From Paenibacillus riograndensis SBR5 (lineage in GTDB: Bacteria; Bacillota; Bacilli; Paenibacillales; Paenibacillaceae): a stretch of 64,000 nt of DNA. Positions 27,858-51,605 of this stretch are shown here, in pieces; the stretch's first letter is position 1; each line of letters begins with the position of its first letter. The position numbers were made by a program, and so were the translations under genes. The stretch covers positions 6,183,187 through 6,247,186 of the forward strand of contig NZ_LN831776.1 in NCBI RefSeq assembly GCF_000981585.1, given 5' to 3'. Below the pieces are notes generated by a model. That model was not told where the DNA came from. It was given only the letters and a program-made list of their open reading frames with translations, and ran no database searches.

Positions 27858-29096
27858 ATGAACAATCCGGCAAACCGGAAGCTGAACAGCAAAGTATGGA
27901 ATATCTTGCTTGGAACGCTTTTTACCAGAACGGCACTCTTTATGAGCACACCTTTTCTGGCCATATTTCTGACGACTCAAAAGGATATTTCCCTCCTCCA
28001 CACCGGCTATATTCTCAGCATTAACCCGCTCATCAATGTGTTGTTCGGCAGTTTTGGCGGGAGGCTTGCTGATAAGCTCTCCTTGAAAAAAATAATAGGC
28101 GGAATCCCGCTTGTCTGGGGTTCCGCCTTCATCCTGTTCTATTTTGCCGGCAGCTTCTGGCATTTTCTTCTGCTTAGCGGCCTTAACGGCTTGTGCTATT
28201 CTATCTTTGAGCCTGCCAGCAAAAAAGTGCTGTCTGCCCAAACCGCCCCGGACAACCGGCTGCTGGTATTTAACCTGAGGTATTCCGCGATTAATCTGGG
28301 AGCTTTTATCGGCCCCCTCCTAAGTTTGCTGTTTAATATGAAGCTGACACTGTTTCCTTACGTGATCCTAGGCATCCTGTATATTCTATATGGGATATCG
28401 ACCCGGTTTTTCTTCCGGGATATGCCGGCCGGAGCGCCAGCTTCGCCGCCCCTACCGCTCCGCCGCCCGCGAGCCTTCACCGTAATCCGCAAAGATCATG
28501 TTTTCCTTCTGCTGTTGGCCGGCATGAGCTTCTCTTTCTTCGGTTATTCCCAGCTGAATGCAACCGTCTCGCAGTATCTGGCTACCACCAGTGCTTTAAC
28601 GAATGGTGTTCAACTGTACTCCACCCTTCTATCTGCCAATGCCCTGATCATTCTCGCTGCCCAATTTGTGCTGCTGCGCTGGATCTCCGGCTGGAATCCC
28701 TTTACCGTCGTGCTTGTCAGCAATTTGCTGATCGGCCTAAGCTTTTTGCCGTTTATCTTACCGCCTGCTTTGCTGCCGCTCCTTGCATTTATTGTCCTCT
28801 TCAGTGTAGGAGAACTGCTGATCGGCGCCCGCTTCGATGCCTTGGTGGATGAGCTGGCCGCAACAGAAGTCAAAGGCCTGTATTTCGGCTGCTCGGAATT
28901 GATCAAGGCGGGGACCATCGCCGGGCCATTAGCTGGAACCCGCCTGCTGGGCCATTTCGGAGTACAGGCCGGATTCCCCGTCTTTGCCCTGTTATGCGCC
29001 ATCACGATCACCGGTGCAGGGCTGATTGCCCTAGCCAAGTCCAGGCATAGGAAAGTTATTCATGCGCAGAAGCCTCTGGAAGAATATCACGCTTGA
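27858..29096 (+). CDS. MFS transporter, probable drug or metabolite exporter
   Basis: The 412-residue protein has about twelve membrane helices in two bundles. The loop between helices 2 and 3 carries an MFS motif A variant (GGRLADKLSLKK). The second half has GELLIGARFDALVDELA and GLYFGCSELIKAGTIAGP, patterns seen in 12-helix exporters of the MdtH/YttB sort. The substrate is not recognisable. It is divergent from the Rgg-like regulator, which probably controls it. Its 3' end overlaps the convergent kdpD-related gene by 41 bases, and no hairpin terminator separates them. Confidence 0.88.
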   Translation: MNNPANRKLNSKVWNILLGTLFTRTALFMSTPFLAIFLTTQKDISLLHTGYILSINPLINVLFGSFGGRLADKLSLKKIIGGIPLVWGSAFILFYFAGSFWHFLLLSGLNGLCYSIFEPASKKVLSAQTAPDNRLLVFNLRYSAINLGAFIGPLLSLLFNMKLTLFPYVILGILYILYGISTRFFFRDMPAGAPASPPLPLRRPRAFTVIRKDHVFLLLLAGMSFSFFGYSQLNATVSQYLATTSALTNGVQLYSTLLSANALIILAAQFVLLRWISGWNPFTVVLVSNLLIGLSFLPFILPPALLPLLAFIVLFSVGELLIGARFDALVDELAATEVKGLYFGCSELIKAGTIAGPLAGTRLLGHFGVQAGFPVFALLCAITITGAGLIALAKSRHRKVIHAQKPLEEYHA

Positions 29097-31422
29097 TGTG
29101 AGGATCGTAGTTGGCGACAATCAGAATATCCATATGCCTTGCGGTGCGCAGCAGTTTTTTGATGATCGTGCCTTCCCATAACCGTTTCCATGCCGGGCGG
29201 TCACATTGGCCGATAATAAGCTGGGTGGCATGGTGTTCGTCAGCTTTTGCCTGAATGACCTCTGCAAGCCTTGATGAAGGCCCTGATGAGGAGATCATTT
29301 CAAATTTTCCGCCCAGCCGAAGGGTCAGGTTCTCAATGCTTGCTTTCATTTTCAGCTCGTCCTCGGTCAGTTCTTTCGCTGAATGTACATAAGCAACAAT
29401 CCAATCCGCCTTCAACCGGAAAGCTGTCCTGAATCCCCTGCGGATTAGTTTCCCGGCACTCTGGCTAAGCTTCACACAGACAAAAATAACCTCCTGCTTA
29501 TTCCAGGGCCCGCGAAGAGAGCTGACACGCTCCCATGCCTCCAGCCGTTCATCTACGTCATCGGCAATTTCCCGGAGCGACAGCTCTCTCAAGGCAATCA
29601 AATTCCCGATTTTAAAAAAATTGTCCAGCGCTTGATCGATTTTTTCCCGGGCATAAATCTTCCCGTCCTTCATGCGGGCTTGCAGCGCCTGTGGCGCCAC
29701 ATCGATAAGTTCCACCTCATCCGCCAGGCGGAGAATGGAATCCGGGACGGTTTCCCTCACCCGAACCCCGGTGATTTGGGCCACCGCATCATTCAAGCTT
29801 TCCAGATGCTGCACGTTGACGGTTGAAATCACCGAGATGCCGGCATTCAGAATTTCCATTACATCTTCATAACGCTTTTTGTACTTGCTCCCGGGAACGT
29901 TAGTGTGAGCCAGTTCGTCAACCAGCACCACTTCCGGGTTGCGCCTCAGGATGGCCCCGGTATCCATTTCCTCCAGCACAGTTTCTGAATATTTGATTTT
30001 TGCCCGTTCGATAAACGGCAGTTCAGCCACCTGCTGGCCCGTTTCCTGCCGGCCGTGCGTTTCCAGCAGACCGATAACAACATCTACTCCCTTCTTGAGC
30101 AGATGATTGCCTTCCCGCAGCATGGTATAGGTTTTGCCTACTCCGGGTGCCGCACCAATAAAGACCTTGAACCGCCCCCGCCGGATCCGCCCGATTTTTT
30201 CGTCTACTTCCCGTGAGCTTAACCGGTGATACAGCGGGTTATCTGCGGGAACGGCCAGTTTTGCGGGCAGAATCCGCTCCCCTTGGTGCTCCGCCCGGTC
30301 GGCAACCATGAAGATATCCATATTCCTGGACTTCCGGATGATGTCATTGACAACAGAGCCTTGCCAGAACTCCTGCCACCTCGACTGCCGGGAATGGCCC
30401 AGCATAATCCGGGTAACATTATGTTCAAGCGCATACTGGATCAGCCGCTCCGGCAATCTTCTCCGGGAATGGAAAGGCAGTTCTTCGAACGCTGCCCCGA
30501 CCTTCCGGACAAGCTTAACGAGCGACTCCTTAAAAGCTGCCTGCTCTTTCGTCAGCGGACGTTTTGGGTTCGTAAAAGTAATGATAATGAGTTCGCCGTT
30601 CAGCCGTTTCGCCACCTGCTGGCCGCGCCGGACATAAATCGAGCCGTTCCAGTGATATTGGGTGGAGACCAGGATGCGTTCCGCCGCGCCGGACGGACCG
30701 AGCATTCCCATCTGCTCACGGTGCTTCTCCAGGGAGTCATTCACCCCTTCCGCCACAAGCCGCAGAGCCAGCTCGCGCAGCACCCCCAGCGTTCCCCGCT
30801 GAAACAGTGCGGCGGTTTTGCTGTTGCGCACATGCCCTTCCGAGACACGCTGGAGCAGCGTTTCAGGCGTTACATCAATCAGACGGATTTCATCTGCAAG
30901 CTCCAGTGTATGGGCAGAGACCGTCTCCTCCACCTCAATCCCCATATATTTCTGGGCCAGTTCCCTTACGCCTTCCAGCTCATATACGTTTACCGTAGTT
31001 ATTACACTGATTCCGTGACCCAGCAGGAAGTGGATATCTTCCAATCTGGTCTTATGCACTGCATCAGGACGGTTCCGGTGCGCCAGGCCATCCACCAGAA
31101 CCACCTCCGGGTTCCGCTGGATTAAGGCTTCCACATTCAGATCCTTTTTTTCCGTGCCGTCGTGGACCCAATGAATGCTCGGGATCCGTTCGAGCTGCCC
31201 GATTTGTTCAATCGTTTCAGGACGCTGGAGCGTGGATACCGCACAGATGACGACATCTATTCCCTGCTGCTGGAGCGCTGTTCCTTCCCGCAGCATATGA
31301 TAGGTTTTGCCCGACCCGCTTACTGCACCAATAAAAATTTTCAACCGTCCGCGATGCAGCTTGGAGATGGATAACAAGATTTCCTCCGGACTTTTCCGCT
31401 TGAAGTTTTCCACCTTGTCCAT
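29056..31422 (-). CDS. Tandem KdpD sensor-domain protein without kinase
   Basis: The 788-residue protein consists of two successive copies of the cytoplasmic N-terminal half of KdpD: KdpD P-loop domain plus USP-like domain, about residues 20-385, then again 410-775. Each copy has a P-loop (GAVSGSGKT at 32-40 and GAAPGVGKT at about 423-431) and the VDGLAH or VDELAHTN motif. Each also has the STVNV-x-LE segment and a USP domain ending in a GHSR- or GQCDR-like nucleotide loop and DI-x-IVA. There are no membrane helices, no DHp histidine and no ATPase domain. The second copy is closer to KdpD consensus; the first is diverged (DGLAH for DELAH). It is the last gene of the kdpFABC operon, 15 bases after kdpC, while a full KdpD is encoded separately. 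A regulator of Kdp signalling or transport is plausible but inferred. Confidence 0.85.
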   Translation of the reverse strand: MDKVENFKRKSPEEILLSISKLHRGRLKIFIGAVSGSGKTYHMLREGTALQQQGIDVVICAVSTLQRPETIEQIGQLERIPSIHWVHDGTEKKDLNVEALIQRNPEVVLVDGLAHRNRPDAVHKTRLEDIHFLLGHGISVITTVNVYELEGVRELAQKYMGIEVEETVSAHTLELADEIRLIDVTPETLLQRVSEGHVRNSKTAALFQRGTLGVLRELALRLVAEGVNDSLEKHREQMGMLGPSGAAERILVSTQYHWNGSIYVRRGQQVAKRLNGELIIITFTNPKRPLTKEQAAFKESLVKLVRKVGAAFEELPFHSRRRLPERLIQYALEHNVTRIMLGHSRQSRWQEFWQGSVVNDIIRKSRNMDIFMVADRAEHQGERILPAKLAVPADNPLYHRLSSREVDEKIGRIRRGRFKVFIGAAPGVGKTYTMLREGNHLLKKGVDVVIGLLETHGRQETGQQVAELPFIERAKIKYSETVLEEMDTGAILRRNPEVVLVDELAHTNVPGSKYKKRYEDVMEILNAGISVISTVNVQHLESLNDAVAQITGVRVRETVPDSILRLADEVELIDVAPQALQARMKDGKIYAREKIDQALDNFFKIGNLIALRELSLREIADDVDERLEAWERVSSLRGPWNKQEVIFVCVKLSQSAGKLIRRGFRTAFRLKADWIVAYVHSAKELTEDELKMKASIENLTLRLGGKFEMISSSGPSSRLAEVIQAKADEHHATQLIIGQCDRPAWKRLWEGTIIKKLLRTARHMDILIVANYDPHIKRDILPEASAHE

Positions 31423-32026: not shown

Positions 32027-34054
32027 CTATACCCAGAATTGGACAACCAAGTCTATCAGCTTAATGCCGGCAAACGGGACAATCACACCGCCCAAGCCAT
32101 AAATAATCAGGTTGCGGCTCAGAAGCTGTGACGAGCTCATCGGCTTATATGCTACCCCTTTCATCGCCAGCGGAATCAGCAGCGGAATAATCACCGCGTT
32201 AAAGATCAAGGCCGAAAGGATGGCTGACAGAGGGGAATGCAGTCTCATCACATTCAAGACTTCCATTTCAGGAATCGCCACCATGAACATCGCTGGAATA
32301 ATCGCAAAATATTTGGCGATATCATTCGCAATACTGAATGTAGTTAATGCTCCGCGGGTCATCAGCAGCTGCTTGCCGATAGAGACCACTTCAATAATTT
32401 TGGAAGGATCGGAGTCAAGGTCCACCATGTTGGCGGCTTCCTTGGCAGCAACTGTTCCGCTGTTCATGGCAATCCCCACATCGGCCTGGGCCAAGGCAGG
32501 GGCATCATTGGTGCCGTCACCGGTCATGGCTACCAGCTTGCCTTCCGCTTGTTCACGGCGGATTACAGCAATTTTATCCTCCGGTTTACTTTCAGCAATG
32601 AAATCATCCACTCCGGCTTCAGCGGCGATGGTGGCAGCTGTCAGCGGATTGTCCCCCGTACACATAATGGTCTTAATTCCCATCTTCCGCATCTGCTCGA
32701 ACCGTTCCCGCATCCCTGGTTTTACAGTATCCTTCAGGTAAATGAGGCCGTATATCGTCTGATCGACCGCGACAGCGAGCGGTGTTCCCCCCGCCGACGC
32801 AATCGCGTTGCTGTTAGCCTGCAAATCGTCCGGGATGATCCCGCCCTGGCCGGCAACCCATTGCTTTACCGCATCTACAGCCCCCTTGCGGATATGCCGC
32901 CCGTCCGGCAGGTCAATGCCGCTCATGCGGGTCTCTGCCTTGAACTCCACGAATTCCGCACCATCAGCAACGGACTCCTGAAAAGACAGATTCTGACTCT
33001 TCAGCAGCTCCAGCACAGACCGCCCCTCAGGCGTCTCATCGCGAACCGAACTTAAGGCTGCCCAAGCCGCCACATCCTGCCGGGAGTGCTTGCCTACCGG
33101 GATAAATTCACTGGCCATGCGGTTTCCGTAAGTGATGGTTCCTGTTTTATCGAGAATGATCGTGTTGATATCCCCCGATGCTTCCACCGCTTTACCGGAC
33201 ATAGCCAATACATTGAACTGTGTGACCCGGTCCATTCCGGCAATACCGATGGCTGACAGCAGCCCTCCGATGGTGGTGGGGATCAGGCAGACCAGCAGGG
33301 CAATCAGCACAGGAACTTCCAGGCGGATATCCAGATAATCGGCAAAGAAAGGCAGCGTAATGACTACAATCAGGAAAATAATCGTCAGACTGACCAGCAC
33401 GGTATTTAGCGCAATCTCGTTTGGCGTTTTTTGACGTTTGGCCCCTTCCACCAGAGAAATCATCCGGTCCAGAAATGACTCTCCGGGATCACTGGTAATG
33501 CGGACCTTAATCCGGTCGCTGATTACCTTGGTTCCTCCGGTTACAGAGCTGAAGTCACCGCCAGCCTCTTTGATCACCGGAGCAGATTCGCCCGTAATGG
33601 CCGATTCATCGACCGAGGCCAGGCCTTCAATGACTTCCCCGTCACCCGGAATCATTTCTCCCTGGGCCACAATAACCACATCGCCTTTGCGCAGTTCCGT
33701 GGAAGGCACTTCTTTGACCGAGCTTCCGCTCACCTTGTTTGCGGTGATCTCTTTTTTTGATTTTTTGAGGGAATCAGCTTGCGCCTTGCCCCGGCCTTCC
33801 GCCAGTGCTTCCGCAAAATTGGCAAAGAGTACCGTGAACAGCAAAATGAACGCTACCGCAAGATTAAAGCCCGTGGAGACATCCCCGCCAAATGCATCAG
33901 GCACAAATACAAGAAATAAGGTAATGATGAAGCCGATCTCCACCACAAACATGATCGGATTGCGCAGCATAACGCGCGGGTCCAGCTTAATAAACGCCTG
34001 CTTGGCAGCCTGAATGACGATATCTTTATTGATTGCACTTTTCTTTGTACTCAT
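32027..34054 (-). CDS. kdpB: Potassium-transporting P-type ATPase subunit KdpB
   Basis: The 675-residue catalytic subunit hydrolyses ATP to energise K+ uptake through KdpA. It shows the actuator motif ITGES, the phosphorylation motif [11 protein letters not shown], the nucleotide-domain phrase [11 protein letters not shown] and the hinge [14 protein letters not shown], with about seven membrane helices. The ATG at 34054 follows GGAGG by seven bases and gives MSTKKSA. It lies 23 bases after kdpA. Full length, with no missing key residue. Confidence 0.97.
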
Positions 34055-34077
34055 TTTTCTTCCTCCATCCATAACCT

Positions 34078-35754
34078 CTAAGGTTTCAGCGTCAAGAATT
34101 CAGCAATCGGTCCCAGGGCAAGCGCCGGGAAGAATGTCAATGCTCCGACAATCAGTACCGTACCCAGAAAAACAGCACCAAACAGAGCCTTGTCCGTACG
34201 GAAGGTCCCTGAGGTTTCCGGTACAGTTTTCTTGGCTGCCAGTGAACCGGCTACAGCCAGCATCGCAATGATGGAGAAATACCGGCCAAGGAACATCACA
34301 ATTCCGGTGGAGATATTCCAGAACGGCGTCGCATCGCCAAGCCCCTCAAAGCCGGAGCCATTGTTGGCAGCAGAGGAAGTAAATTCATACAGCGCCTGTG
34401 TCAGCCCGTGAAAGCCGGGATTCGAAAGGGTATCGGACTGGGTGAGCAGCGCCAGGGCCGTAGGCAGCAGAATAAGCATCGGATTGATAATCAGCGTGAC
34501 TGCAATCAGCTTCATTTCCTTACCTTCTATTTTTTTACCAAGAAACTCCGGTGTTCGTCCTACCATCAGACCCGATAGAAATACCGCAATCATCGTATAC
34601 ATCAGCACGTTAACAAATCCTACCCCGACACCGCCAAATACTGTGTTCAGCATCATATTGCCGATCGTAATCAATCCGCCTATAGGCGTCAGCGTATCAT
34701 GCATCGTATTGACCGCTCCTGTCTCCGATGCTGTCGTAACGACCGAGTACAGGGCAGACTGGGCAACGCCGAACCTGGCCTCCTTCCCTTCCATGGAGCC
34801 TTGCTGATGCTGAATACCCAGAGCGTTGACGGCCGGATTTCCTGCATTTTCACTGGCCAGTGAAATCCCCAGGAAGACTATGAACATCATGGCCATCGAT
34901 ACGAACAGCACCCGGCCCTGTTTTTTATTGCCGACCATTTTCCCGTAGGTAAAAGGAAGCCCCGTACCCAGCAGCAGCATGAGCAGAATTTGCAGCAGGT
35001 TGCTGATCGCATCCGGATTCTCGAAAGGATGGGCCGAATTGACACCAAAAAATCCGCCGCCGTTGTTGCCCAGCTCTTTTATGGACAGAAAAGAGGCTAC
35101 AGGACCGCGCGCGATCTCTTGTGTCACACCTTCCAGCGTATGGCCCAGAGCAGTAGGCTCCAGCGTTTGGGGCACACCAAGGGCCACGAAAACAAATGCC
35201 AGGACAAAGCAGACCGGCAGCAGAATCCGGGTGATTGCCCGGACCATATCCACGAAGAAGTTCCCCAGGGGTTTCCCGGTCAAACCGCGGATAATGGCGA
35301 TTCCCACAGCAAGCCCGGTAGCGGGGGAGGTAAACATCATAAATACGATCGCCAGCATTTGCGACAGATAGGATAGCCCGCTTTCGCCGCTGTAATGCTG
35401 AAGATTAGTATTTGCCATAAAGCTGATTACCGTATTAAAAGCAAGTGTCGGCTCCATCGAAGCAATCCCGCTTGGATTTAACGGCAGCGCACCCTGAAAC
35501 CTGAAAATCAGATAGACCAGCAGCATCATCATTGCATTGCTGAGGACCGCAGCCAGAGCGTATTGCTTCCAGTTATAGTTCTCCTTACGTATTCCGCCAA
35601 TCGCATAAACCGGTTTCTCCAGCCAGCCGAACCAGCGGTCCAGCCCTGTTCGCTCATAATTGAAGACTTGAGCCATATACAGTCCCGCAGGACGGGCAAG
35701 CAGCAAGGAGAGCAATAAGGTTATAGCAATTGCGATATAAGAAATCATGGTCAC
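34078..35754 (-). CDS. kdpA: Potassium-transporting ATPase subunit KdpA
   Basis: KdpA (558 residues) is the K+-binding channel-like subunit, related to Trk/Ktr permeases. It has about ten helices and selectivity-loop-like segments such as [57 protein letters not shown] and [10 protein letters not shown]. The likely start is GTG at 35754, six bases after GGAGGG; an ATG two codons later is an alternative with looser spacing. It follows kdpF by 23 bases. Confidence 0.97.
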
Positions 35755-35777: not shown

Positions 35778-35858
35778 CTAGAATTTTTCCGGATTAATCA
35801 GCGCGTAAGTTAAGTACACAAAGAGAGCTGCTACGATTATTCCCAGTACCCACATCAT
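35778..35858 (-). CDS. kdpF: KdpF small membrane subunit
   Basis: A 26-residue hydrophobic peptide reads from the ATG at 35858 to TAG at 35778. It begins MMWVLGIIVAALFVYLTYAL and ends NPEKF; the single helix followed by N-P-E-K-F matches KdpF. KdpF stabilises the KdpFABC complex in the membrane. AGGGAG lies nine bases upstream, and the start overlaps the end of the preceding 35-codon ORF (ATGA-type overlap). It is too short for routine gene callers. Confidence 0.9.
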   Translation of the reverse strand: MMWVLGIIVAALFVYLTYALINPEKF

Positions 35859-35962
35859 CCTTGGTCACTCCCTTTATCGATGGTTCCGGAAGCCCATTGC
35901 GCCAGCCCGGTCATGAGCAGGGTGAGAATAATTAGTGCGGCAATCATATAAATGTCCAACAT
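35855..35962 (-). CDS. 35-residue membrane microprotein upstream of kdpF
   Basis: An ORF of 36 codons starts at ATG 35962 with a very strong site (AGAAGGAGG, about eight bases upstream) and ends with TGA overlapping the kdpF ATG by four bases. The peptide begins MLDIYMIAALIILTLLMTG, a single membrane helix, and continues with a polar tail ending in DKGSDQG. The ribosome site and the coupled stop/start argue that it is translated. I do not recognise the family; it could be an additional Kdp accessory peptide or a second KdpF-like subunit. It lies just after the 109-residue membrane protein gene. Confidence 0.7.
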   Translation of the reverse strand: MLDIYMIAALIILTLLMTGLAQWASGTIDKGSDQG

Positions 35963-35988: not shown

Positions 35989-36318
35989 CTAATATCTGTC
36001 TTCGCCCAGCACCTGGTTCACAGCCTTGAGGAAGGCTGCATAACCTCCATCCCTATCCTGCCGGGAAGCCAGCGCCAAGAGCATCGTCTGCTCGATTTGC
36101 CTGCCGTCCAGCTCATAGCTGCCTGACAGGATTTCTCTAACCTCGTCCTCGGGCGCTCCCTGGGCGAACTTTCGGGCCGCTTTATAAATGTCTTTATTTT
36201 CATAGCAGCCTTGAACTCCCGCCTTCCGCATGTCGGCAACATCGTATAGTTTTTTTATCGAATACAGCACCACCAGCAGAATTGAGATCAGCCCCGTGTT
36301 TCTTAACAATCCTTCCAT
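35989..36318 (-). CDS. Uncharacterised membrane-anchored protein heading the kdp structural operon
   Basis: The 109-residue product has one N-terminal helix (LISILLVVLYSIKKLYDV, residues 10-27) and a mainly helical soluble tail with EDEVREILSGSYELDGRQIEQTM and several charged turns. The ATG at 36318 has AGGTGG upstream. It is the first gene after the candidate KdpE operator at 36425-36441 and is followed within 26 bases by the microprotein gene and kdpF. That places it in the Kdp operon. I do not recognise a family or function. A role in assembly or control of the pump is suggested only by position. Confidence 0.75.
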   Translation of the reverse strand: MEGLLRNTGLISILLVVLYSIKKLYDVADMRKAGVQGCYENKDIYKAARKFAQGAPEDEVREILSGSYELDGRQIEQTMLLALASRQDRDGGYAAFLKAVNQVLGEDRY

Positions 36319-36520: not shown

Positions 36521-37228
36521 TCAGCTATCGTCACCGACTTGAAGCATCCGGTAGCCAATTCCGATATGTGTTTGAATATACTTGAACTGCACGGGGGTTT
36601 TTTCGATTTTTTTCCTTAAGGTTGCCATAAATACCCGCAAGGAAGGGATATCCACGGTAGGACTGCCCCAAATTTCATGCAGGATATAATTATGGGTCAG
36701 CACCTTGCCGACATTTTTGGCCAGCAGACACAGAAGCTTGTATTCACTTGGGGTCAGATGGATTTCTTCTTCACCGATCCATACGCATCCGGCGGCATAA
36801 TCAATCTTCAGGTTTCCATTGACGAAGCTGGATGCATCCTTGAGAAGCTTGTCACTGTCATACCGGATTCTCCGCAGACTGACCCGCAGTCTGGCCAGCA
36901 GTTCCTCCACACTGAAGGGCTTGGTCAGATAATCATCCGCCCCCGCATCCAGCGCCTCTATTTTGTCCCGGTCTTCGCTGCGTGCACTGACCACGATAAT
37001 CGGCAGATTCGACCATGTGCGGATCTTTTTGATGATGTCCACACCATCCATATCCGGCAGCCCCAAGTCGAGGATCATCAGCTCCGGCTGGCTGGATACC
37101 GCTTCTAATATGGAGGCTTCGCCCGTCTCAGCCGTATGGTATTTATACCCTTGGGTCTCCAGCGTGGTTGTAATCAGCTTGCGGATCGGCTTGTCGTCCT
37201 CCACGACAAGAATTAAAGGCTTATTCAT
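36521..37228 (-). CDS. kdpE: Response regulator KdpE
   Basis: The 235-residue OmpR-family regulator activates the kdp pump genes when K+ is limiting or turgor falls. Its receiver has LVVEDDKPIRK, phospho-Asp in LMILDLGLPDMDG and K in DYLTKPFS. The winged-helix domain has LTPSEYKLLCLLAKNVGKVLTH and EIWGSPTVDIPSLRVFMATLRKKIE. ATG 37228 has AGGAGG nine bases upstream and overlaps the kdpD stop by eight bases, so the two are translationally coupled. The longer frame to 37285 has no ribosome site. Targets are probably its own operon and the structural operon through the 11-bp direct repeats described here. Confidence 0.96.
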   Translation of the reverse strand: MNKPLILVVEDDKPIRKLITTTLETQGYKYHTAETGEASILEAVSSQPELMILDLGLPDMDGVDIIKKIRTWSNLPIIVVSARSEDRDKIEALDAGADDYLTKPFSVEELLARLRVSLRRIRYDSDKLLKDASSFVNGNLKIDYAAGCVWIGEEEIHLTPSEYKLLCLLAKNVGKVLTHNYILHEIWGSPTVDIPSLRVFMATLRKKIEKTPVQFKYIQTHIGIGYRMLQVGDDS

Positions 37229-39920
37229 GAACATTGACCTCCTCAGCGTGCAGGGTGAAATAAAATACCGTACCTTTGGGGACATTATCCCTCACGCCTA
37301 TCGTCCCTCCATGGGCATTCACAATGGACTTGCACAGAGACAGCCCCAGGCCCAGGCCACGGCGGCCATCCCCGCGAATGTTATCCGCCGTAAAAAACAT
37401 CTCAAACAGCCTGGCCTTGGCTTCCTCAGAAATACCCGGACCATCATCGGAGATTTCCACAATGACCCGATGCCCGTCCTGTCTGGCCGAAACCGTAATG
37501 TGGGAACCCTGCTGGGTATACTTTATGGCATTATCCACAATATTGATCAGAACCTGCACAATCAGCCGGGAATCCATCCGGGCCATAAGCAGCTCATCAT
37601 CGAGTTTCGTGTGAATCACATGCTTCTCACTGTTGCGGTTCACATGAAGGAGTGCTTCGGAGATCACCTCCTCCATTAATTCTGCCTGAAAATTAAGATT
37701 TAGTGTGCCATTTTCAATCCGGCTGATCGACAGCAAATTTTCCACCAAATGAATCAGCCAGATAGAGTCATCATAAATATCCGTGTACAGTCCTTTTTTC
37801 TGTTCCTCGCTAAGGACCCCGGAATTTCCCACCAGAATTCCTGCGTTCCCCGAGATGCTGGTAAGGGGGGTCCGCAGATCATGAGAGATCGAGCGGAGCA
37901 GATTGGCACGCAGATGCTCCTGCTGAATTTGCATGGAAATTTCTTTTTGTTTTTCGTTCAGTTTTTCTTTTTCCAGCGCAAGTGCACATTCTCCCAGCAT
38001 GGCAATCATCAGGCCCTTCTCAAAAACCTCTAATGGCTCTTCCTGCTCCATCACAATAGCGGCCACTGCAAAAACCGTGTCGCCTCCGCGCACAGCATGG
38101 TACAGGCAATTTGCGCCAAAAAATGTATCCGTGGTCGCTCCCGCACGCTTGTTGTTTTTCAATACCCAATCTGCAACGGCACGTTCATTGCTGCCCGTGT
38201 ACGTATGCGGATCAACTTCAGAGCCTTCCTTTGGAAAAATCAGCGGTGCGCTTAATGCCCCTTCCTGAACCGAATAAAAAATAACCGTCCTGTCCAGCAG
38301 CTTAACCATCTGACGGGCCATTTCATCAATGATCGCCGGGGAATCCTTCGCCTGCTGCAGCTTCCGGCTGGTTTCCAGAAGAACCTCCGTCCGGTAGGCT
38401 TTTTGTGCGGATTGACGGGCCTGCTCGCTTACCCGCATGGTCAGTGTACTGGTTATGAACGAGGCCGCCAGCATCACCAGAAACGTAACCGGATACCCTG
38501 CTTCATACGCATTCAGAGAATAGTAAGGCTCGGTAAAAAAGTAATTGAACACAAGCACACTCATCACCGACGAAACGGCGCTGTACACCCTTCCCTTGGT
38601 TACAATTGCGCTTAACAGAACCCCCAGAATATATACAGTAATAATATTGGATTCCAGAAACCCGAGATAGCGGAACCAGATGCCGATCAGGGTGCAGACC
38701 ACTAGAATGGCAATCGTCTTGTTGGTATCTGCCAGCGACAGCTTGGGATATCTCGCGTATAAAGGTAATCTTTTGTAAAAAGAGGGTTGAGTATAGGGAA
38801 TAATATAGATTTCAATATTGGGAAGCAGAGTGGTGAGCTTATCCACGAGATTAGATTTAGCATACCCTCTCTTTTTAAAGGGAGAGCGGCCGAGGACAAT
38901 TTTTGAAACCCGGCTTGTTTTGGCATATTCCGCGATCTGTCCCGGGACATCCTCTCCATACACCGTCGCGATATTCGCCCCCATTTGCTCAGCCAGCCTT
39001 AAATTATCCCTCAGCTCGGTTTTGTTTTTTTGGGTTAATTTTTGGGTTTGCGGTGTTTCTACAAAAAGTGCCGTAAACTGTCCATGGAAGGCTTCAGCCA
39101 TTCTCGCAGCCGCCCTGATCACTTTCTTATTGGAAGCGGCCGAGGATAGGCAGACCAAAATATGATCTTTGGTATCATAATCATTTTTTTTCGCCTGTTC
39201 ACTAATTTGTATGGCGATCCGGTTTAGCTGGCTTGCCGTATTGCGCAGAGCAATTTCACGCAGCGCCGTCAGCTTCTCCTTGGTGAACAACTGCCCCATT
39301 GCCTGTTCATCAGCATTGTCACGATATATTTTCCCTTTATGCAAACGGTCTATTAAGTCATTAGGTTCAATATCAACCAATTCCACCTGATCCGCACTAT
39401 CGAATACGCTATCCGGAATGCGTTCCTGAACAGTCATACCGGTAATAGAGTAGACAATGTCCGTCAGGCTCTCAATCTGCTGGACATTAATCGTCGTATA
39501 GACATGAATTCCCGCGCGGAGAAGCTCCTCCACATCCTGATATCTTTTTTTGTGGCGGCATCCGGCCGTATTCGCATGAGCTAAATCGTCCAGCAAAATA
39601 AGCTCAGGGCTGCGCTGGAGTGCTCGGTCCAGGTCAAACTCCGGAATGACAGAAGCTTCATAGGACATTTTTATTGGAGGTACAAGCTCCAGGCCTTCCA
39701 GCATAGCCAAGGTATCCGGCCGGGCATGGGTTTCTATAAACCCGCCTACCACATCCGTCCCCTCTTTTTGCTCCTCATGGGCCGCTTTCAGCATCGCACA
39801 GGTTTTTCCTGCGCCCGGCGCATATCCAATAAAAATTTTCAGCCTTCCTCTTCGTTGTCCTGTCTTCATGCCTGTTAACTGTTCAAGTATGGAACCGTCA
39901 CCGGTCTGATTGATCTCCAT
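37221..39920 (-). CDS. kdpD: Full-length sensor kinase KdpD
   Basis: The 899-residue kinase has the KdpD P-loop domain (GYAPGAGKT, residues 32-40; LLDDLAHAN) and a USP-like domain (about 245-370, ILVCLSSAASNKKV and FTALFVET). Four close membrane helices (about 395-500) and a GAF-like domain follow. Its kinase core has H680 in SISHDLRTPL and ATP boxes DNAIKYTQ, DDGPGI and GLGLGLSLCK. Family knowledge: KdpD senses low K+ or osmotic stress, and in Staphylococcus aureus the USP domain binds cyclic di-AMP. The key motif of that site (SxS then FTAxY) is only partly kept here (SSAAS, FTALF). It heads the kdpDE operon. Confidence 0.96.
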   Translation of the reverse strand: MEINQTGDGSILEQLTGMKTGQRRGRLKIFIGYAPGAGKTCAMLKAAHEEQKEGTDVVGGFIETHARPDTLAMLEGLELVPPIKMSYEASVIPEFDLDRALQRSPELILLDDLAHANTAGCRHKKRYQDVEELLRAGIHVYTTINVQQIESLTDIVYSITGMTVQERIPDSVFDSADQVELVDIEPNDLIDRLHKGKIYRDNADEQAMGQLFTKEKLTALREIALRNTASQLNRIAIQISEQAKKNDYDTKDHILVCLSSAASNKKVIRAAARMAEAFHGQFTALFVETPQTQKLTQKNKTELRDNLRLAEQMGANIATVYGEDVPGQIAEYAKTSRVSKIVLGRSPFKKRGYAKSNLVDKLTTLLPNIEIYIIPYTQPSFYKRLPLYARYPKLSLADTNKTIAILVVCTLIGIWFRYLGFLESNIITVYILGVLLSAIVTKGRVYSAVSSVMSVLVFNYFFTEPYYSLNAYEAGYPVTFLVMLAASFITSTLTMRVSEQARQSAQKAYRTEVLLETSRKLQQAKDSPAIIDEMARQMVKLLDRTVIFYSVQEGALSAPLIFPKEGSEVDPHTYTGSNERAVADWVLKNNKRAGATTDTFFGANCLYHAVRGGDTVFAVAAIVMEQEEPLEVFEKGLMIAMLGECALALEKEKLNEKQKEISMQIQQEHLRANLLRSISHDLRTPLTSISGNAGILVGNSGVLSEEQKKGLYTDIYDDSIWLIHLVENLLSISRIENGTLNLNFQAELMEEVISEALLHVNRNSEKHVIHTKLDDELLMARMDSRLIVQVLINIVDNAIKYTQQGSHITVSARQDGHRVIVEISDDGPGISEEAKARLFEMFFTADNIRGDGRRGLGLGLSLCKSIVNAHGGTIGVRDNVPKGTVFYFTLHAEEVNVHE

Positions 39921-44418: not shown

Positions 44419-44497
44419 TACCGGCGAGAGGACTCGAACCTCCACGGTTTCCCACTCGATTTTGAGTCGAGCGCGTCTGCCATTCCGCCACGCCGGC
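44419..44497 (-). tRNA. tRNA-Leu (anticodon CAA)
   Basis: Acceptor GCCGGCG/CGCCGGT, anticodon stem CTCGA-CTCAAAA-TCGAG with anticodon CAA, an 11-base variable arm (class II) and T-loop TTCGAGT. No CCA is encoded. It is last in the cluster. Confidence 0.93.
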
Positions 44498-44520
44498 AAA
44501 ATTTGATAATTGAATAAAAA

Positions 44521-44597
44521 TGGCGCGCCCTGAGAGATTCGAACTCCCGACCTTTTGATTCGTAGTCAAACGCTCTATCCAGCTGAGCTAAGGGCGC
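44521..44597 (-). tRNA. tRNA-Arg (anticodon ACG)
   Basis: Acceptor GCGCCCT/AGGGCGC, anticodon loop CTACGAA with ACG (inosine-type wobble expected), T-loop TTCGAAT and an encoded CCA. Confidence 0.95.
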
Positions 44598-44603
44598 AAA
44601 TTA

Positions 44604-44678
44604 TGGAGCGGACGACGGGAATCGAACCCGCGACCCTCGCCTTGGCAAGGCGATGCTCTACCGCTGAGCCACGTCCGC
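44604..44678 (-). tRNA. tRNA-Gly (anticodon GCC)
   Basis: Acceptor GCGGACG with CGTCCGC, anticodon loop TGCCAAG (GCC), T-loop TTCGATT and encoded CCA. Confidence 0.95.
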
Positions 44679-44714
44679 ACACGGTATGTATAGCAGCTGA
44701 TGCTTATGCTGTAA

Positions 44715-44832
44715 CCCTGAAGCAAATTATTGATGGCGGAACCGACGGGATACTCTTCACTTCGTTACGAGATTGCGATGTAATCCTTACGAAGTCTATG
44801 CTCCAACGAACCCTATGATGGATTCTCATCCC
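44715..44832. repeat. Partial tRNA-Asp 3' end copy plus ~80-nt insert (copy A)
   Basis: The 37 bases 44715-44751 (CCCTGAAGCAAATT...GACGGGAT) repeat the intergenic sequence and 3' end of the tRNA-Asp gene at 44830-44865, with one extra base, and stop inside the T-arm. The insert that follows, 44752-44832, starts ACTCTTCACTTCG and has CGAGATTGCGA and CCTTACGAAG. It is closely similar to the insert next to the tRNA-Glu gene at 45228-45305. Confidence 0.8.
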
Positions 44833-44847
44833 TGAAGCAAATTTTGA

Positions 44848-44925
44848 TGGCGGAACCGACGGGATTCGAACCCGCGATCTCCTGCGTGACAGGCAGGCAT
44901 GTTAGGCCAACTACACCACGGTTCC
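44848..44925 (-). tRNA. tRNA-Asp (anticodon GTC)
   Basis: Acceptor GGAACCG/CGGTTCC, anticodon stem CCTGC with loop CTGTCAC (GTC), T-loop TTCGAAT and encoded CCA. A truncated copy of its 3' end lies about 115 bases away. Confidence 0.95.
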
Positions 44926-44955
44926 AAATTAAGCACTACTCTTTTTGGGGTTAAA

Positions 44956-45029
<74 letters not shown>

Positions 45030-45058
45030 TCAGTAAAAAATATTCAATTGGAGCCTCA

Positions 45059-45134
45059 TGGTGGAGGCTGAGGGGTTCGAACCCCCGACCCTCTGCTTGT
45101 AAGGCAGATGCTCTCCCAGCTGAGCTAAGCCTCC
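45059..45134 (-). tRNA. tRNA-Val (anticodon TAC)
   Basis: Acceptor GGAGGCT/AGCCTCC, anticodon loop CTTACAA (TAC), T-arm GGGGG-TTCGAAC-CCCCT and encoded CCA. Confidence 0.95.
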
Positions 45135-45212
45135 ATGAAAGAAGCAACTTAATGATCATAGCACAGTTAGTTGACAAAAGCAAGTCGTGAAAATGTGTGT
45201 TGAATAAAATGA

Positions 45213-45305
45213 TGACCCGTATGGGATACTCTCCACTCCGTTTCGAGATTGCGAAGTATTCCTTACGAAGCGTAAGCTTCAACGAACCCTATGGATTCTC
45301 AACCC
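45213..45305. repeat. Partial tRNA-Glu 3' end copy plus ~80-nt insert (copy B)
   Basis: TGACCCGTATGGGAT at 45213-45227 repeats the 3' end of the tRNA-Glu gene (45326-45341 on the plus strand) and breaks at the same T-arm position as copy A. The insert 45228-45305 (ACTCTCCACTCCG, CGAGATTGCGA, CCTTACGAAGCGTAAGCTTC, GATTCTCAACCC) is the counterpart of 44752-44832. Confidence 0.8.
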
Positions 45306-45323
45306 AAAATTCGAAGATGTAAT

Positions 45324-45398
45324 TGGTGACCCGTATGGGATTCGAACCCATGTTACCTCCGTGAAAGGGAGGTGTCTTAACCCCTTGACCAACGGGCC
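45324..45398 (-). tRNA. tRNA-Glu (anticodon TTC)
   Basis: Acceptor GGCCCGT/ACGGGTC, anticodon stem CCTCC with loop CTTTCAC (TTC), T-loop TTCGAAT and encoded CCA. It is first in the seven-gene tRNA cluster. Confidence 0.95.
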
Positions 45399-45491
45399 AT
45401 AATGTAGAACTAACATTTGACAACAAAAAATATTATATCAAACAAAGAGGTATATAGCAATAGTTTCTTAAGAAAAGTTGGGAGATCTGCT

Positions 45492-46091
45492 TCATCTGTC
45501 AAGCAAACGAATGTGCTGATATTTCACTTTTAAGCGTTGAATAAATCTTCTCATCCTCCCTGGTGCAGCGGGCAGCAGCGAAATCTGAAGTTTGGCGGCT
45601 ATGGCTTCTGCCACCTGCTCAATACTCATATTATCTGTAACCAGTTGCTCGGCAAATATAGGGTGCTGATGCCCTTTTAGGCATCTGTCGATCTGATTGG
45701 CAGCCCATGAGTGTTTTCCTTCTCCACGGCTTCTCAGCCGGGCCAGGAGCCGATCCCGCGATACATACAAGGTGTAGTGATACACCTTGATCCCGTCCTC
45801 TCTCAGTCGTCCAACGATCTCCCTAAAGTAATCAGGCTCGACAATCGTCATTGGAACAATAATGATCCCCTCAAATTCGGAGGCAATATATCGTAACATG
45901 GAATAATTAAATTCACGCCACTGAGAGTAATTTTGAAAATCATTTTTCTTCAGTGTTGAAGGTATGTTCTTCTGTATGTAGTAGCCGGCATTTTCCGGGT
46001 CGAACACAAAGGAATGTGGGATTCTGCGATTTAGCTCAAAGGCCGTTTGAGTTTTTCCCGAACCAAAAGCTCCATTTATCCAAAGAATCAT
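45492..46091 (-). CDS. tmrB: TmrB-like ATP-binding tunicamycin resistance protein
   Basis: The 199-residue protein has an N-terminal P-loop (MILWINGAFGSGKTQTAFEL, Walker A at residues 7-14). It then has the TmrB phrases DPENAGYYIQ, WREFNYSMLRYI, GIIIVPMTIV and KHSWAANQIDRC, and a basic, amphipathic C-terminus (MRRFIQRLKVKYQHIRL). It lines up along its full length with B. subtilis TmrB, which confers tunicamycin resistance and associates with the membrane through its C-terminal helix. It stands alone between the tRNA and rRNA clusters with a repeat copy upstream. The resistance function here is inferred from homology; the fold is that of small nucleotide kinases. Confidence 0.82.
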   Translation of the reverse strand: MILWINGAFGSGKTQTAFELNRRIPHSFVFDPENAGYYIQKNIPSTLKKNDFQNYSQWREFNYSMLRYIASEFEGIIIVPMTIVEPDYFREIVGRLREDGIKVYHYTLYVSRDRLLARLRSRGEGKHSWAANQIDRCLKGHQHPIFAEQLVTDNMSIEQVAEAIAAKLQISLLPAAPGRMRRFIQRLKVKYQHIRLLDR

Positions 46092-46203
46092 GGCATCGCC
46101 TCCGAAGATTAGCCTTCTACTTACTCTCTATTCTAAAAAAACAAAATAGCTCCCTCGCCCTTCTGGTCAACATAGCTGCTTGGGGTTTCAGTTGAGTTGC
46201 TGA

Positions 46204-46366
46204 AGGTCCCTCCATGAACCCCTAGGCGGCTCCAAGTGGAAAAAGGTTAACTAATTCAGCTCATTTCGCCTCTCGAATAGTAATATTGCCAATTAAGATT
46301 CCTTTTTCCTCTTATTTCTCACGATTATTGATTTTTCAGAGAAATAGGTTCCCTTTTTCCAACTAG
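46204..46366 (+). repeat. Dispersed repeat, copy 2
   Basis: The core 46234-46366 starts AAGTGGAAAAAGGTTAACT and ends CCCTTTTTCCAACTAG, parallel to 43848-43981. Similarity continues about 30 bases upstream (CTCCATGAACCCCTAGG against CCCATGAATCCTACGG). It fills most of the gene-free stretch between tmrB and the 5S terminator. Confidence 0.75.
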
Positions 46367-46477
46367 CGCTTACAAGAAAGCAGTTGAGCAAGCACCAGTT
46401 AGGAAAAGATATCTCAGCTGACGATTTCCTTCAATTCAGGCAAATTCCACTTTTTTAGAATATCATGATTTCCCACA

Positions 46478-46515
46478 AAACAAAAAAGCCACTGTTGATT
46501 ATTCAACAATGGCTT
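46478..46515 (-). terminator. rRNA operon terminator
   Basis: AAGCCATTGTTGA and TCAACAGTGGCTT pair over 13 bases with one weak pair and run into TTTTTTG, directly after the 5S gene on the minus strand. Confidence 0.9.
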
Positions 46516-46520
46516 CATGT

Positions 46521-46637
46521 GCTTGGCGGCGTCCTACTCTCCCAGGACCCTTCGGTCCAAGTACCATCGGCGCTGGAGGGCTTAACGGTCGTGTTCGGGA
46601 TGGGTACGTGTGGAACCCCTCCGCTATCGCCACCAAA
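46521..46637 (-). rRNA. 5S rRNA
   Basis: On the minus strand the sequence reads TTTGGTGGCGATAGCGG to CGCCAAGC, with the conserved internal TACCCATCCCGAACACG segment. About 117 nt, the usual length, placed after the 23S gene. Ends are set by pairing of the termini and are accurate to a few bases. Confidence 0.95.
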
Positions 46638-46788
46638 CGGGCACTTGCGGTGCAAATGCATAATTCAGGTCTCAGCATCGCCAAATGCTGAAAGCAAATG
46701 TCACATCATGCGGCCACTTGGACCTCATGACTTCCAATTTGATTCCTGAAAACTGAATCCGAAACGAAATCTACATTTTAGTTTTTTT

Positions 46789-51605
<4,817 letters not shown>

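What the first reader, a model, noticed from the sequence alone, without database searches (positions are those of the whole stretch)
29056..31422. Tandem, kinase-less KdpD sensor protein beside a complete KdpDE
The last gene of the kdpFABC operon encodes two fused copies of the KdpD P-loop plus USP half, with no membrane helices, DHp histidine or ATPase domain. A complete KdpD with its own KdpE lies in the same locus. Stand-alone KdpD N-terminal halves are known in some bacteria. A head-to-tail duplicated one, with a second copy near consensus and a diverged first copy (DGLAH for DELAH), is a form I do not recognise as described. It may act as a ligand-binding (K+, ATP or cyclic dinucleotide) decoy or a transport-coupled regulator of KdpD or KdpB.
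Basis: partly seen in the sequence, partly recalled or inferred. Interest (0 to 1): 0.8.

Follow-up and report, generated by a model that had tools for sequence, protein, structure and literature searches.

The report
Double, half-dead potassium-pump regulator
Many Paenibacillus-like bacteria end their potassium-pump operon with a two-copy version of the part of the KdpD sensor that in other bacteria switches the pump off by tagging it with phosphate; one copy has kept the catalytic residue and the other has lost it, which makes this a widespread and testable form of pump control.

Summary
Window 29056-31422 is one 788-aa minus-strand gene, 15 nt after kdpC, with two KdpD(P-loop)+USP modules and no histidine-kinase parts. 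It is no artefact: the 120 listed relatives are 763-791 aa, and 44 of 299 genomes of its class match nearly full length. The KdpD P-loop domain is an atypical serine kinase (ASK) that inactivates KdpB by phosphorylating Ser162 (PMC11018627). Read against that, the tandem is asymmetric. Module 2 keeps the tested ASK residues (125 of 125 held copies). Module 1 keeps the ATP-site residues (125 of 125) but has lost the catalytic Walker-B glutamate in 121 of 125. Module 1 has the best-conserved USP ligand loop; module 2's varies. Complete KdpDs sharing an operon with a tandem have altered ASK sites (39 of 41, against 2 of 27 without), mostly one lineage. Most likely: a dedicated KdpB serine kinase fused to a sensing pseudo-kinase. 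At least one other tandem kind arose independently. New variant of a known kind; the activity is inferred, not shown.

The parts
29056..31422 (-). tandem KdpD N-terminal-half gene, 788 aa, last gene of the kdp operon
   Evidence: relatives of the same length
30742..31356 (-). module 1 KdpD (P-loop) domain, residues 23-227
   Evidence: PF02702
31303..31329 (-). module 1 Walker A, GAVSGSGKT (residues 32-40)
   Evidence: Lys and Thr kept in 125 of 125 held type I copies
31087..31092 (-). module 1 Walker B Asp111-Gly112 (Gly in place of the catalytic Glu, E. coli E110)
30295..30687 (-). module 1 USP domain (approximate, residues 246-376)
   Evidence: USP fold in the model, (which module matched is not stated there)
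30640..30660 (-). module 1 USP loop QYHWNGS (residues 255-261), best-conserved 7-residue window of this domain at the 90% identity limit
29554..30183 (-). module 2 KdpD (P-loop) domain, residues 414-623
   Evidence: PF02702; 2r8r matched at residues 415-628
30130..30156 (-). module 2 Walker A, GAAPGVGKT (residues 423-431)
29914..29919 (-). module 2 Walker B Asp502-Glu503 (intact)
29134..29487 (-). module 2 USP domain (residues 646-763)
   Evidence: PF00582
31438..32046 (-). kdpC
32027..34072 (-). kdpB, the expected substrate
33584..33586 (-). KdpB Ser163 of the TGES motif (E. coli Ser162)
   Evidence: sequence; motif; position counted by hand
34078..35754 (-). kdpA
35778..35858 (-). kdpF (26 aa), named from its place and resemblance (recalled), no family call
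35855..35962 (-). 35-aa membrane-like ORF before kdpF
35989..36318 (-). 109-aa ORF of unknown family between kdpE and kdpF
36521..37285 (-). kdpE
   Evidence: best NCBIfam match PRK10529 KdpE, 230 bits, under its cut-off of 325
37221..39920 (-). complete kdpD histidine kinase with altered serine-kinase site (GKTC, DDLAH)

Best explanation
The gene encodes a dedicated, soluble regulator of the KdpFABC pump, made with the pump. Module 2 is an atypical serine kinase (ASK) that binds ATP at its Walker A motif and uses the Walker B Asp-Glu pair to move the phosphate to the TGES serine of KdpB, locking the pump when potassium is sufficient. Module 1 is a pseudo-ASK: it still has the ATP-site residues but lacks the catalytic glutamate, and its USP domain carries the conserved ligand loop, so it most likely senses a nucleotide (c-di-AMP is the leading candidate) and sets the activity or KdpB docking of module 2. 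In operons that also hold a complete KdpD, KdpD keeps histidine-kinase control of transcription through KdpE while the serine-kinase job has moved to the tandem. Shown here: architecture, residue patterns, gene order, distribution, altered KdpD sites. Shown by others for single KdpD domains: ASK chemistry and c-di-AMP stimulation. Inferred: that this protein does the same, and the sensor/catalyst split.
For: E. coli KdpD 1-230 alone phosphorylates KdpB; Walker A, D109, E110 and the W39/R190 pair are needed; a KdpD/USP-only protein of D. geothermalis is a c-di-AMP-stimulated ASK (PMC11018627; abstract, sections 8 and 18, part 1 of section 9 and passages seen). Module 2 of type I tandems has K37, T38, D109, E110, R190 in 125 of 125 and Tyr/Phe at 39 in 125 of 125; module 1 has K, T, Tyr39, D109, R190 in 125 of 125 but E110 in only 4 of 125 (copies include the same genome held twice and near-duplicates; in 81 proteins under 90% identity E110 is 4 of 81 against 81 of 81). 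Module 1's USP loop has mean conservation 0.97 and ranks 1 of 130 windows, module 2's 0.478 and 87 of 128; by comparing the sequences by eye I place it on the beta1-alpha1 loop that holds c-di-AMP in S. aureus KdpD (PMC8214093, abstract, section 14 and passages). The tandem is the next kdp-type gene after kdpC on the same strand in 100 of the 121 then held (for the 121), 88 of these within 101 nt. Complete KdpDs sharing an operon with a tandem have an altered ASK site in 39 of 41, against 2 of 27 without one in the held locus; the six of the window's own genus without one in the operon are intact. The DHp histidine motif is kept in 87 of 88 complete KdpDs. The genome has two diadenylate cyclase domains.
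Against: No activity has been measured on any tandem. The 39-of-41 contrast is mostly one lineage: only 3 independent pairs exist (the same way in 2.7 of 3 on average, sign test median p = 0.25; the tree is a quick one with warnings of long branches). For 18 of the 41 the shared operon is inferred from a spacing of about 5-10 kb, not seen. Glu-to-Asp at 110 or Cys at 39 may not abolish activity; in the passages seen only alanine changes were tested there, and W39 only together with R190. Two complete KdpDs without a tandem are also altered (L179, L180), and two with it are intact (L141, L234). Of 5 complete KdpDs set apart because no kdpABC lies by them, 4 are altered. Neither module carries the S. 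aureus c-di-AMP motif (0 of 132 each; older form 0 of 121 each), and D. radiodurans short KdpD has a different loop, so the ligand of module 1 is a guess. Four module 1 copies keep the glutamate. The model gives no trustworthy inter-module geometry (mean pLDDT 75.1, pTM 0.71).
Confidence: 0.62

Rival explanations
1. Catalytically silent decoy: the tandem binds ATP, c-di-AMP or KdpB and titrates them, without phosphorylating KdpB.
For: Module 1 lacks the catalytic glutamate; USP folds bind nucleotides (PMC8214093, passages); no histidine-kinase domain.
Against: Module 2 keeps the tested catalytic residues in 125 of 125 held copies, more strictly than the neighbouring complete KdpDs; a sink would not need the glutamate.
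Confidence: 0.12
2. Trans-acting regulator of the KdpD histidine kinase or KdpE: the tandem supplies NTD/USP input to KdpDE and acts on transcription, not on KdpB.
For: The complete KdpD lies in the same locus here; its own NTD site is altered, so input in trans is conceivable.
Against: The tandem occurs, directly behind kdpC, in many loci with no complete kdpD beside it, several with a c-di-AMP riboswitch before kdpF instead; deletion of the single-module kdpD in B. thuringiensis did not change kdp transcription (PMC6488665, passages).
Confidence: 0.1
3. Two ASK modules side by side with module 1 merely decaying: module 2 works alone and module 1 is a spacer or relic.
For: Single-module proteins suffice elsewhere (PMC11018627); module 1 stands on a longer stem branch (0.75 against 0.25 for module 2).
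Against: Module 1's ATP-site residues are kept in 125 of 125 and its USP loop is the best-conserved window of its USP domain; pairs arose more than once.
Confidence: 0.13
4. Artefact: two adjacent genes joined by a sequencing error.
For: Unfused neighbouring pairs do exist in other lineages (L117, L131, L134).
Against: Same fused length in the 120 listed relatives and near-full-length matches in 44 genomes of the class (4 of the 44 have one stop inside the matched stretch).
Confidence: 0.01

Closest known systems
Short KdpD/USP atypical serine kinase (D. geothermalis DgKdpD; PMC11018627)
   Same: KdpD P-loop domain plus USP, no histidine-kinase parts, Walker A/B pattern in module 2; the paper notes the short chain downstream of the pump genes in some species
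   Different: one module there, two here; one module has lost the catalytic glutamate; here a complete KdpD and KdpE are in the same operon
NCBIfam NF038185, KdpD-like non-kinase potassium sensor
   Same: both modules match nearly the whole model
   Different: the model is one 373-residue module; the modules alone score 445.6 and 332 bits, under the cut-off of 550; only the whole protein, 767.9, passes
Truncated KdpD (365 aa) behind the riboswitch-controlled kdp operon of B. thuringiensis (PMC6488665)
   Same: stand-alone KdpD half at the end of a kdp operon; c-di-AMP riboswitch also found before tandem-bearing operons
   Different: single copy; no kdpE there
Full-length KdpD tandem serine histidine kinase (E. 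coli)
   Same: same P-loop plus USP half
   Different: no membrane, DHp or ATPase domains here; the word 'tandem' in that paper means two activities, not two copies

Membership tests
KdpD atypical serine kinase (PMC11018627) | Walker A G-X5-GKT | tested here: met
   both modules; K37 and T38 in 125 of 125 held type I copies each
KdpD atypical serine kinase (PMC11018627), module 2 | Walker B Asp-Glu (D109, E110) | tested here: met
   125 of 125
KdpD atypical serine kinase (PMC11018627), module 1 | Walker B Asp-Glu (D109, E110) | tested here: not met
   Asp 125 of 125, but Glu in 4 of 125; Gly in the window
KdpD atypical serine kinase (PMC11018627) | adenine pair, aromatic residue at 39 and R190 | tested here: met
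   Tyr or Phe and Arg in both modules, 125 of 125; E. coli has Trp
KdpD atypical serine kinase (PMC11018627) | KdpB with TGES serine in the operon | tested here: met
   TGES in the window KdpB; not discriminating, since P-type pumps share the motif (recalled)
KdpD atypical serine kinase (PMC11018627) | ATP-dependent phosphorylation of KdpB | not testable with these tools
   needs protein
NCBIfam NF038185 KdpD non-kinase | score over the curated cut-off of 550 bits | tested here: inconclusive
   767.9 for the whole protein, but 445.6 and 332 for the modules apart
KdpD sensor histidine kinase | membrane region, DHp histidine, ATPase domain | tested here: not met
   no DUF4118, HisKA or HATPase_c in the 788 aa
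c-di-AMP-binding KdpD USP (PMC8214093) | motif (A/G/C)XSXSX2N(Y/F) | tested here: not met
   0 of 132 module 1 and 0 of 132 module 2; the strict pattern also hit 0 of 88 complete KdpDs, so it is a narrow test
c-di-AMP-binding KdpD USP (PMC8214093) | USP fold like 7ji4 | tested here: met
   model matches 7ji4 with TM 0.86 by target length, 23% identity
c-di-AMP-controlled Kdp system | diadenylate cyclase in the genome | tested here: met
   two PF02457 matches

The most novel reading that the evidence does not exclude
The tandem is a bacterial serine kinase regulated by a fused pseudo-kinase: the first module binds ATP and, through its conserved QYHWNGS USP loop, c-di-AMP or another nucleotide, and gates the second module's phosphorylation of KdpB. 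Where it sits in a kdpDE operon it has taken the serine-kinase job from KdpD, leaving KdpD a histidine kinase only. Paired modules have evolved at least twice in Bacillota, probably three times, once with this asymmetry.
Probability: 0.4. Interest if true: 0.8.

Novelty: new variant of a known kind. Interest (0 to 1): 0.62.

Why it matters
The serine-kinase role of KdpD was reported in 2024 from E. coli and one Deinococcus protein. A natural protein in which one module has lost only the proposed catalytic residue, and neighbouring complete KdpDs whose site varies with the presence of that protein, is an evolutionary test of that mechanism. It also points to a common regulator in Paenibacillus and relatives that databases often name 'histidine kinase' although it has no such domain, and it offers a simple system for asking how a pseudo-kinase module and a second messenger set a pump's activity.

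Tried and rejected
Artefact or split gene: rejected. A single origin of the two tandem kinds: uniting type I and type II first modules is rejected (AU p = 0.0206); that the two type I modules are each other's nearest kin is not rejected (p = 0.516). S. aureus-type c-di-AMP motifs in either module: not found. Loss of the whole NTD from complete KdpDs: two genomes looked like it (G829, G818), but PF02702 stretches lie just upstream, so these look like broken or split frames, not clean losses. c-di-AMP riboswitch in the window: none over the gathering score. Structure: one model, mean pLDDT 75.1; the best PDB matches are 2r8r and 7ji4, but the inter-module geometry was not used; a faint match to tandem-type USPs (3loq, TM 0.69 by target, rmsd 11.7) was not pursued.
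Full report
WHAT IS THERE. The reported gene is real and on the minus strand: 788 aa, 15 nt after kdpC. Pfam finds PF02702 twice and USP, and no membrane, DHp or ATPase domain. NCBIfam's single-module family NF038185 matches both halves. The own genome (7.9 Mb, one contig) has three PF02702 matches, all in this locus: two in the tandem, one in the complete KdpD. The two window modules share 37.3% identity over 351 columns.

NOT CHANCE, NOT ERROR. The protein search found 7665 relatives among the 8000 candidates scored and listed the best 120, all 763-791 aa; the names shown are mostly Paenibacillus, also Cohnella, Brevibacillus, Effusibacillus and Heyndrickxia, often with the product 'histidine kinase' or 'universal stress protein'. 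With the whole protein as query at E <= 1e-150, 44 of 299 genomes of the class (Bacilli, by inference) match over about 765 or more of the 788 residues, in 13 of 117 genera and six family codes (f1, f13, f31, f36, f42, f57); 4 of the 44 show one stop inside the matched stretch.

KNOWN CHEMISTRY. PMC11018627 (abstract, sections 8 and 18, part 1 of section 9, and search passages seen) shows that the KdpD N-terminal domain is an atypical serine kinase acting on KdpB Ser162, needing Walker A, D109 and E110 and an adenine-contacting W39/R190 pair, and that a short KdpD/USP protein of D. geothermalis is stimulated by c-di-AMP. Its survey kept only the full-length variant in species that have one, so a tandem beside a complete KdpD would not have been counted.

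THE ASYMMETRY. I aligned modules to E. coli KdpD (from L165). In 125 held type I tandems (including near-duplicates and genomes held twice), residues 37, 38, 39 (aromatic), 109 and 190 are of the expected kind in both modules in every copy; E110 is Glu in 125 of 125 second modules but in 4 of 125 first modules (Gly 103, Asp 6, His 5, Ser 3, Asn 2, Ala 1, Gln 1). In the 81 proteins under 90% identity the figures are 81 of 81 and 4 of 81. A pattern count on the 120 proteins of the database search, which is partly the same species, gives Glu in 4 of 116 first and 116 of 116 second modules of the proteins with exactly two parsed Walker B motifs; 4 proteins had three or one. Single-module proteins have Glu in 40 of 41; the exception, L043, is the cut-off front of a complete KdpD, and 28 of 28 non-redundant single modules have it. 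So module 1 looks like an ATP-site-retaining pseudo-kinase and module 2 like the catalyst.

THE USP LOOPS GO THE OTHER WAY. In the first module the stretch QYHWNGS has mean conservation 0.97 and ranks first of 130 seven-residue windows of the USP domain; the matching stretch of module 2 has 0.478, rank 87 of 128 (81 proteins). At a 70% identity limit (22 proteins) the ranks are 2 of 130 and 75 of 128. By comparing the sequences by eye I place this stretch on the beta1-alpha1 loop that contacts c-di-AMP in S. aureus KdpD (PMC8214093; abstract, section 14 and passages seen; and PMC4686210, passages). The S. aureus motif itself is absent from both modules (0 of 132 each), so the ligand is open.

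ORIGIN. In a tree of 55 modules type I first modules form one branch (100/100) and type I second modules another (100/99). A second kind, type II (7 held copies, both modules with Glu; one in the tree), is separate: its two modules and the unfused neighbouring gene pairs L131 and L134 form one group (100/98), in which one gene of each pair falls with each module. AU testing rejects first modules I and II as one clade (p = 0.0206) and does not reject type I modules as each other's kin (p = 0.516). A third, unfused neighbouring pair stands in Clostridium akagii (L117), elsewhere in the tree. So pairing arose at least twice, probably three times; of these only type I became asymmetric. Two genomes of family code f57 hold both kinds (G466: L135, L136; G498: L137, L138).

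GENE ORDER AND TRANSCRIPTION CONTROL. The tandem is the next kdp-type gene after kdpC on the same strand in 100 of 121 tandem loci then held (some from the same genome), 88 of them at -259 to 101 nt; in L085, L105, L106, L107, L136 and L138 it has no kdpC directly upstream. Among 17 genomes searched with RF00379 with a complete listing, the c-di-AMP riboswitch stands about 5.4 kb before the tandem, that is about where kdpF begins, in 2 of 2 without a complete KdpD (G090, G146; absence) and in 1 of 15 with one (G211, 38.3 bits against a gathering score of 38). In the order-level search of 60 genomes (match list cut, so a lower bound) I count at least 15 tandem-bearing genomes with one in that position. 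The window has none over the gathering score. KdpDE seems to have replaced the riboswitch in part of the window's genus while the tandem stayed; PMC6488665 reports the two controls as mutually exclusive (passages).

THE COMPLETE KDPD NEXT DOOR. In the window the complete KdpD has GKTC and DDLAH. I scored the ASK site as intact if G36, K37, T/S38, W/Y/F39, D109, E110 and R190 are all present. With a tandem in the same operon 39 of 41 distinct complete KdpDs are altered; without one in the held locus 2 of 27. For 18 of the 41 the shared operon is inferred from the spacing of the two genes (about 5-10 kb); the rest were seen. Of the 27, four show no kdpABC in the held stretch (L176, L177, L179, L180), and the two altered ones are among these; the other 23 are intact. 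The 27 include E. coli and 20 drawn from other groups, and six of the window's own genus, all intact: L221-L224, where kdpD follows kdpC, and L226 and L229, which belong to the same KdpD clade as the window's but whose operon lacks the tandem (their genomes have one elsewhere). Three of the altered ones have lost the Walker A lysine (L151, L227, L228). The DHp histidine pattern is found in 87 of 88 complete KdpDs, duplicates included; the one miss, L184, is not tandem-linked. Five complete KdpDs set apart because no kdpABC lies by them, in tandem-bearing genomes, are altered in 4 and intact in 1; three rows were set apart as 'frag', of which L203 was unreadable at Walker A. Caution: the altered group is mainly one lineage. 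On a quick tree of the C-terminal 480 residues only 3 independent pairs exist, agreeing in 2.7 of 3 on average and never disagreeing, median p = 0.25. The pattern is strong in counts and weak as independent events. G211 (L111/L155) is a separate acquisition with Asn at 110.

STRUCTURE. AlphaFold2 on a 69-row alignment gave mean pLDDT 75.1 and pTM 0.71. Foldseek's best PDB matches are the KdpD N-terminal domain 2r8r (TM by target 0.90-0.92, 53% identity) and the S. aureus KdpD USP with c-di-AMP, 7ji4 (0.86).

HOW IT LIKELY WORKS. At low K+ the operon is expressed, by KdpDE here or by riboswitch release in relatives, and the tandem is made with the pump. When K+ rises, a nucleotide signal read by the module 1 USP domain releases module 2, which phosphorylates the KdpB TGES serine. 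Steps shown for related proteins by others: phosphorylation, its effect on the pump, c-di-AMP stimulation. Steps inferred here: that module 2 is active, that module 1 senses, and that KdpD has ceded this role.

LITERATURE. Ten searches of the held PMC library were made and their listings read; none listed a paper about a duplicated KdpD half. Four papers were opened in part: PMC11018627, PMC6488665, PMC4686210, PMC8214093. Subscription papers, bioRxiv beyond copies in PMC, and all supplements were not searched, so this is no proof of absence.

Noticed in passing
window 35855-35962 (-): 35-aa membrane-like ORF just before kdpF; similar small ORFs (often M.DLYM...WCG.VVE..GGER) stand before kdpF in many other loci printed. 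No call names it.
   Followed up: partly
window 35989-36318 (-): 109-aa ORF with one membrane-like stretch between kdpE and kdpF, no Pfam or NCBIfam match; relatives showed up only in loci that have a complete kdpD-kdpE upstream.
   Followed up: partly
G013:C1:2979508, G027:C1:184359, G007:C5:50532 and others: Open frames of about 215-255 aa that match only the USP end (about model 238-371) of NF038185, away from kdp.
   Followed up: no
L085, L105, L106, L107: Tandem genes with no kdpABC found in the held flanks; L105's first module keeps the glutamate (DELAH).
   Followed up: no
L135/L136 and L137/L138 (genomes G466, G498, family code f57): Genomes that carry a type I and a type II tandem at separate places.
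   Followed up: no
L114 (P. terrae), L233 (G859), L219 (G829): Apparently broken copies: tandem reduced to 276 aa or in pieces, or kdpD in two frames; described only.
   Followed up: no
G016, G174, G148, G165, G184, G187, G182, G007, G146: Two c-di-AMP riboswitches in a row before the kdp operon.
   Followed up: no
window 44419-51603 (-): rRNA genes (16S, 23S, 5S) and seven tRNAs.
   Followed up: no
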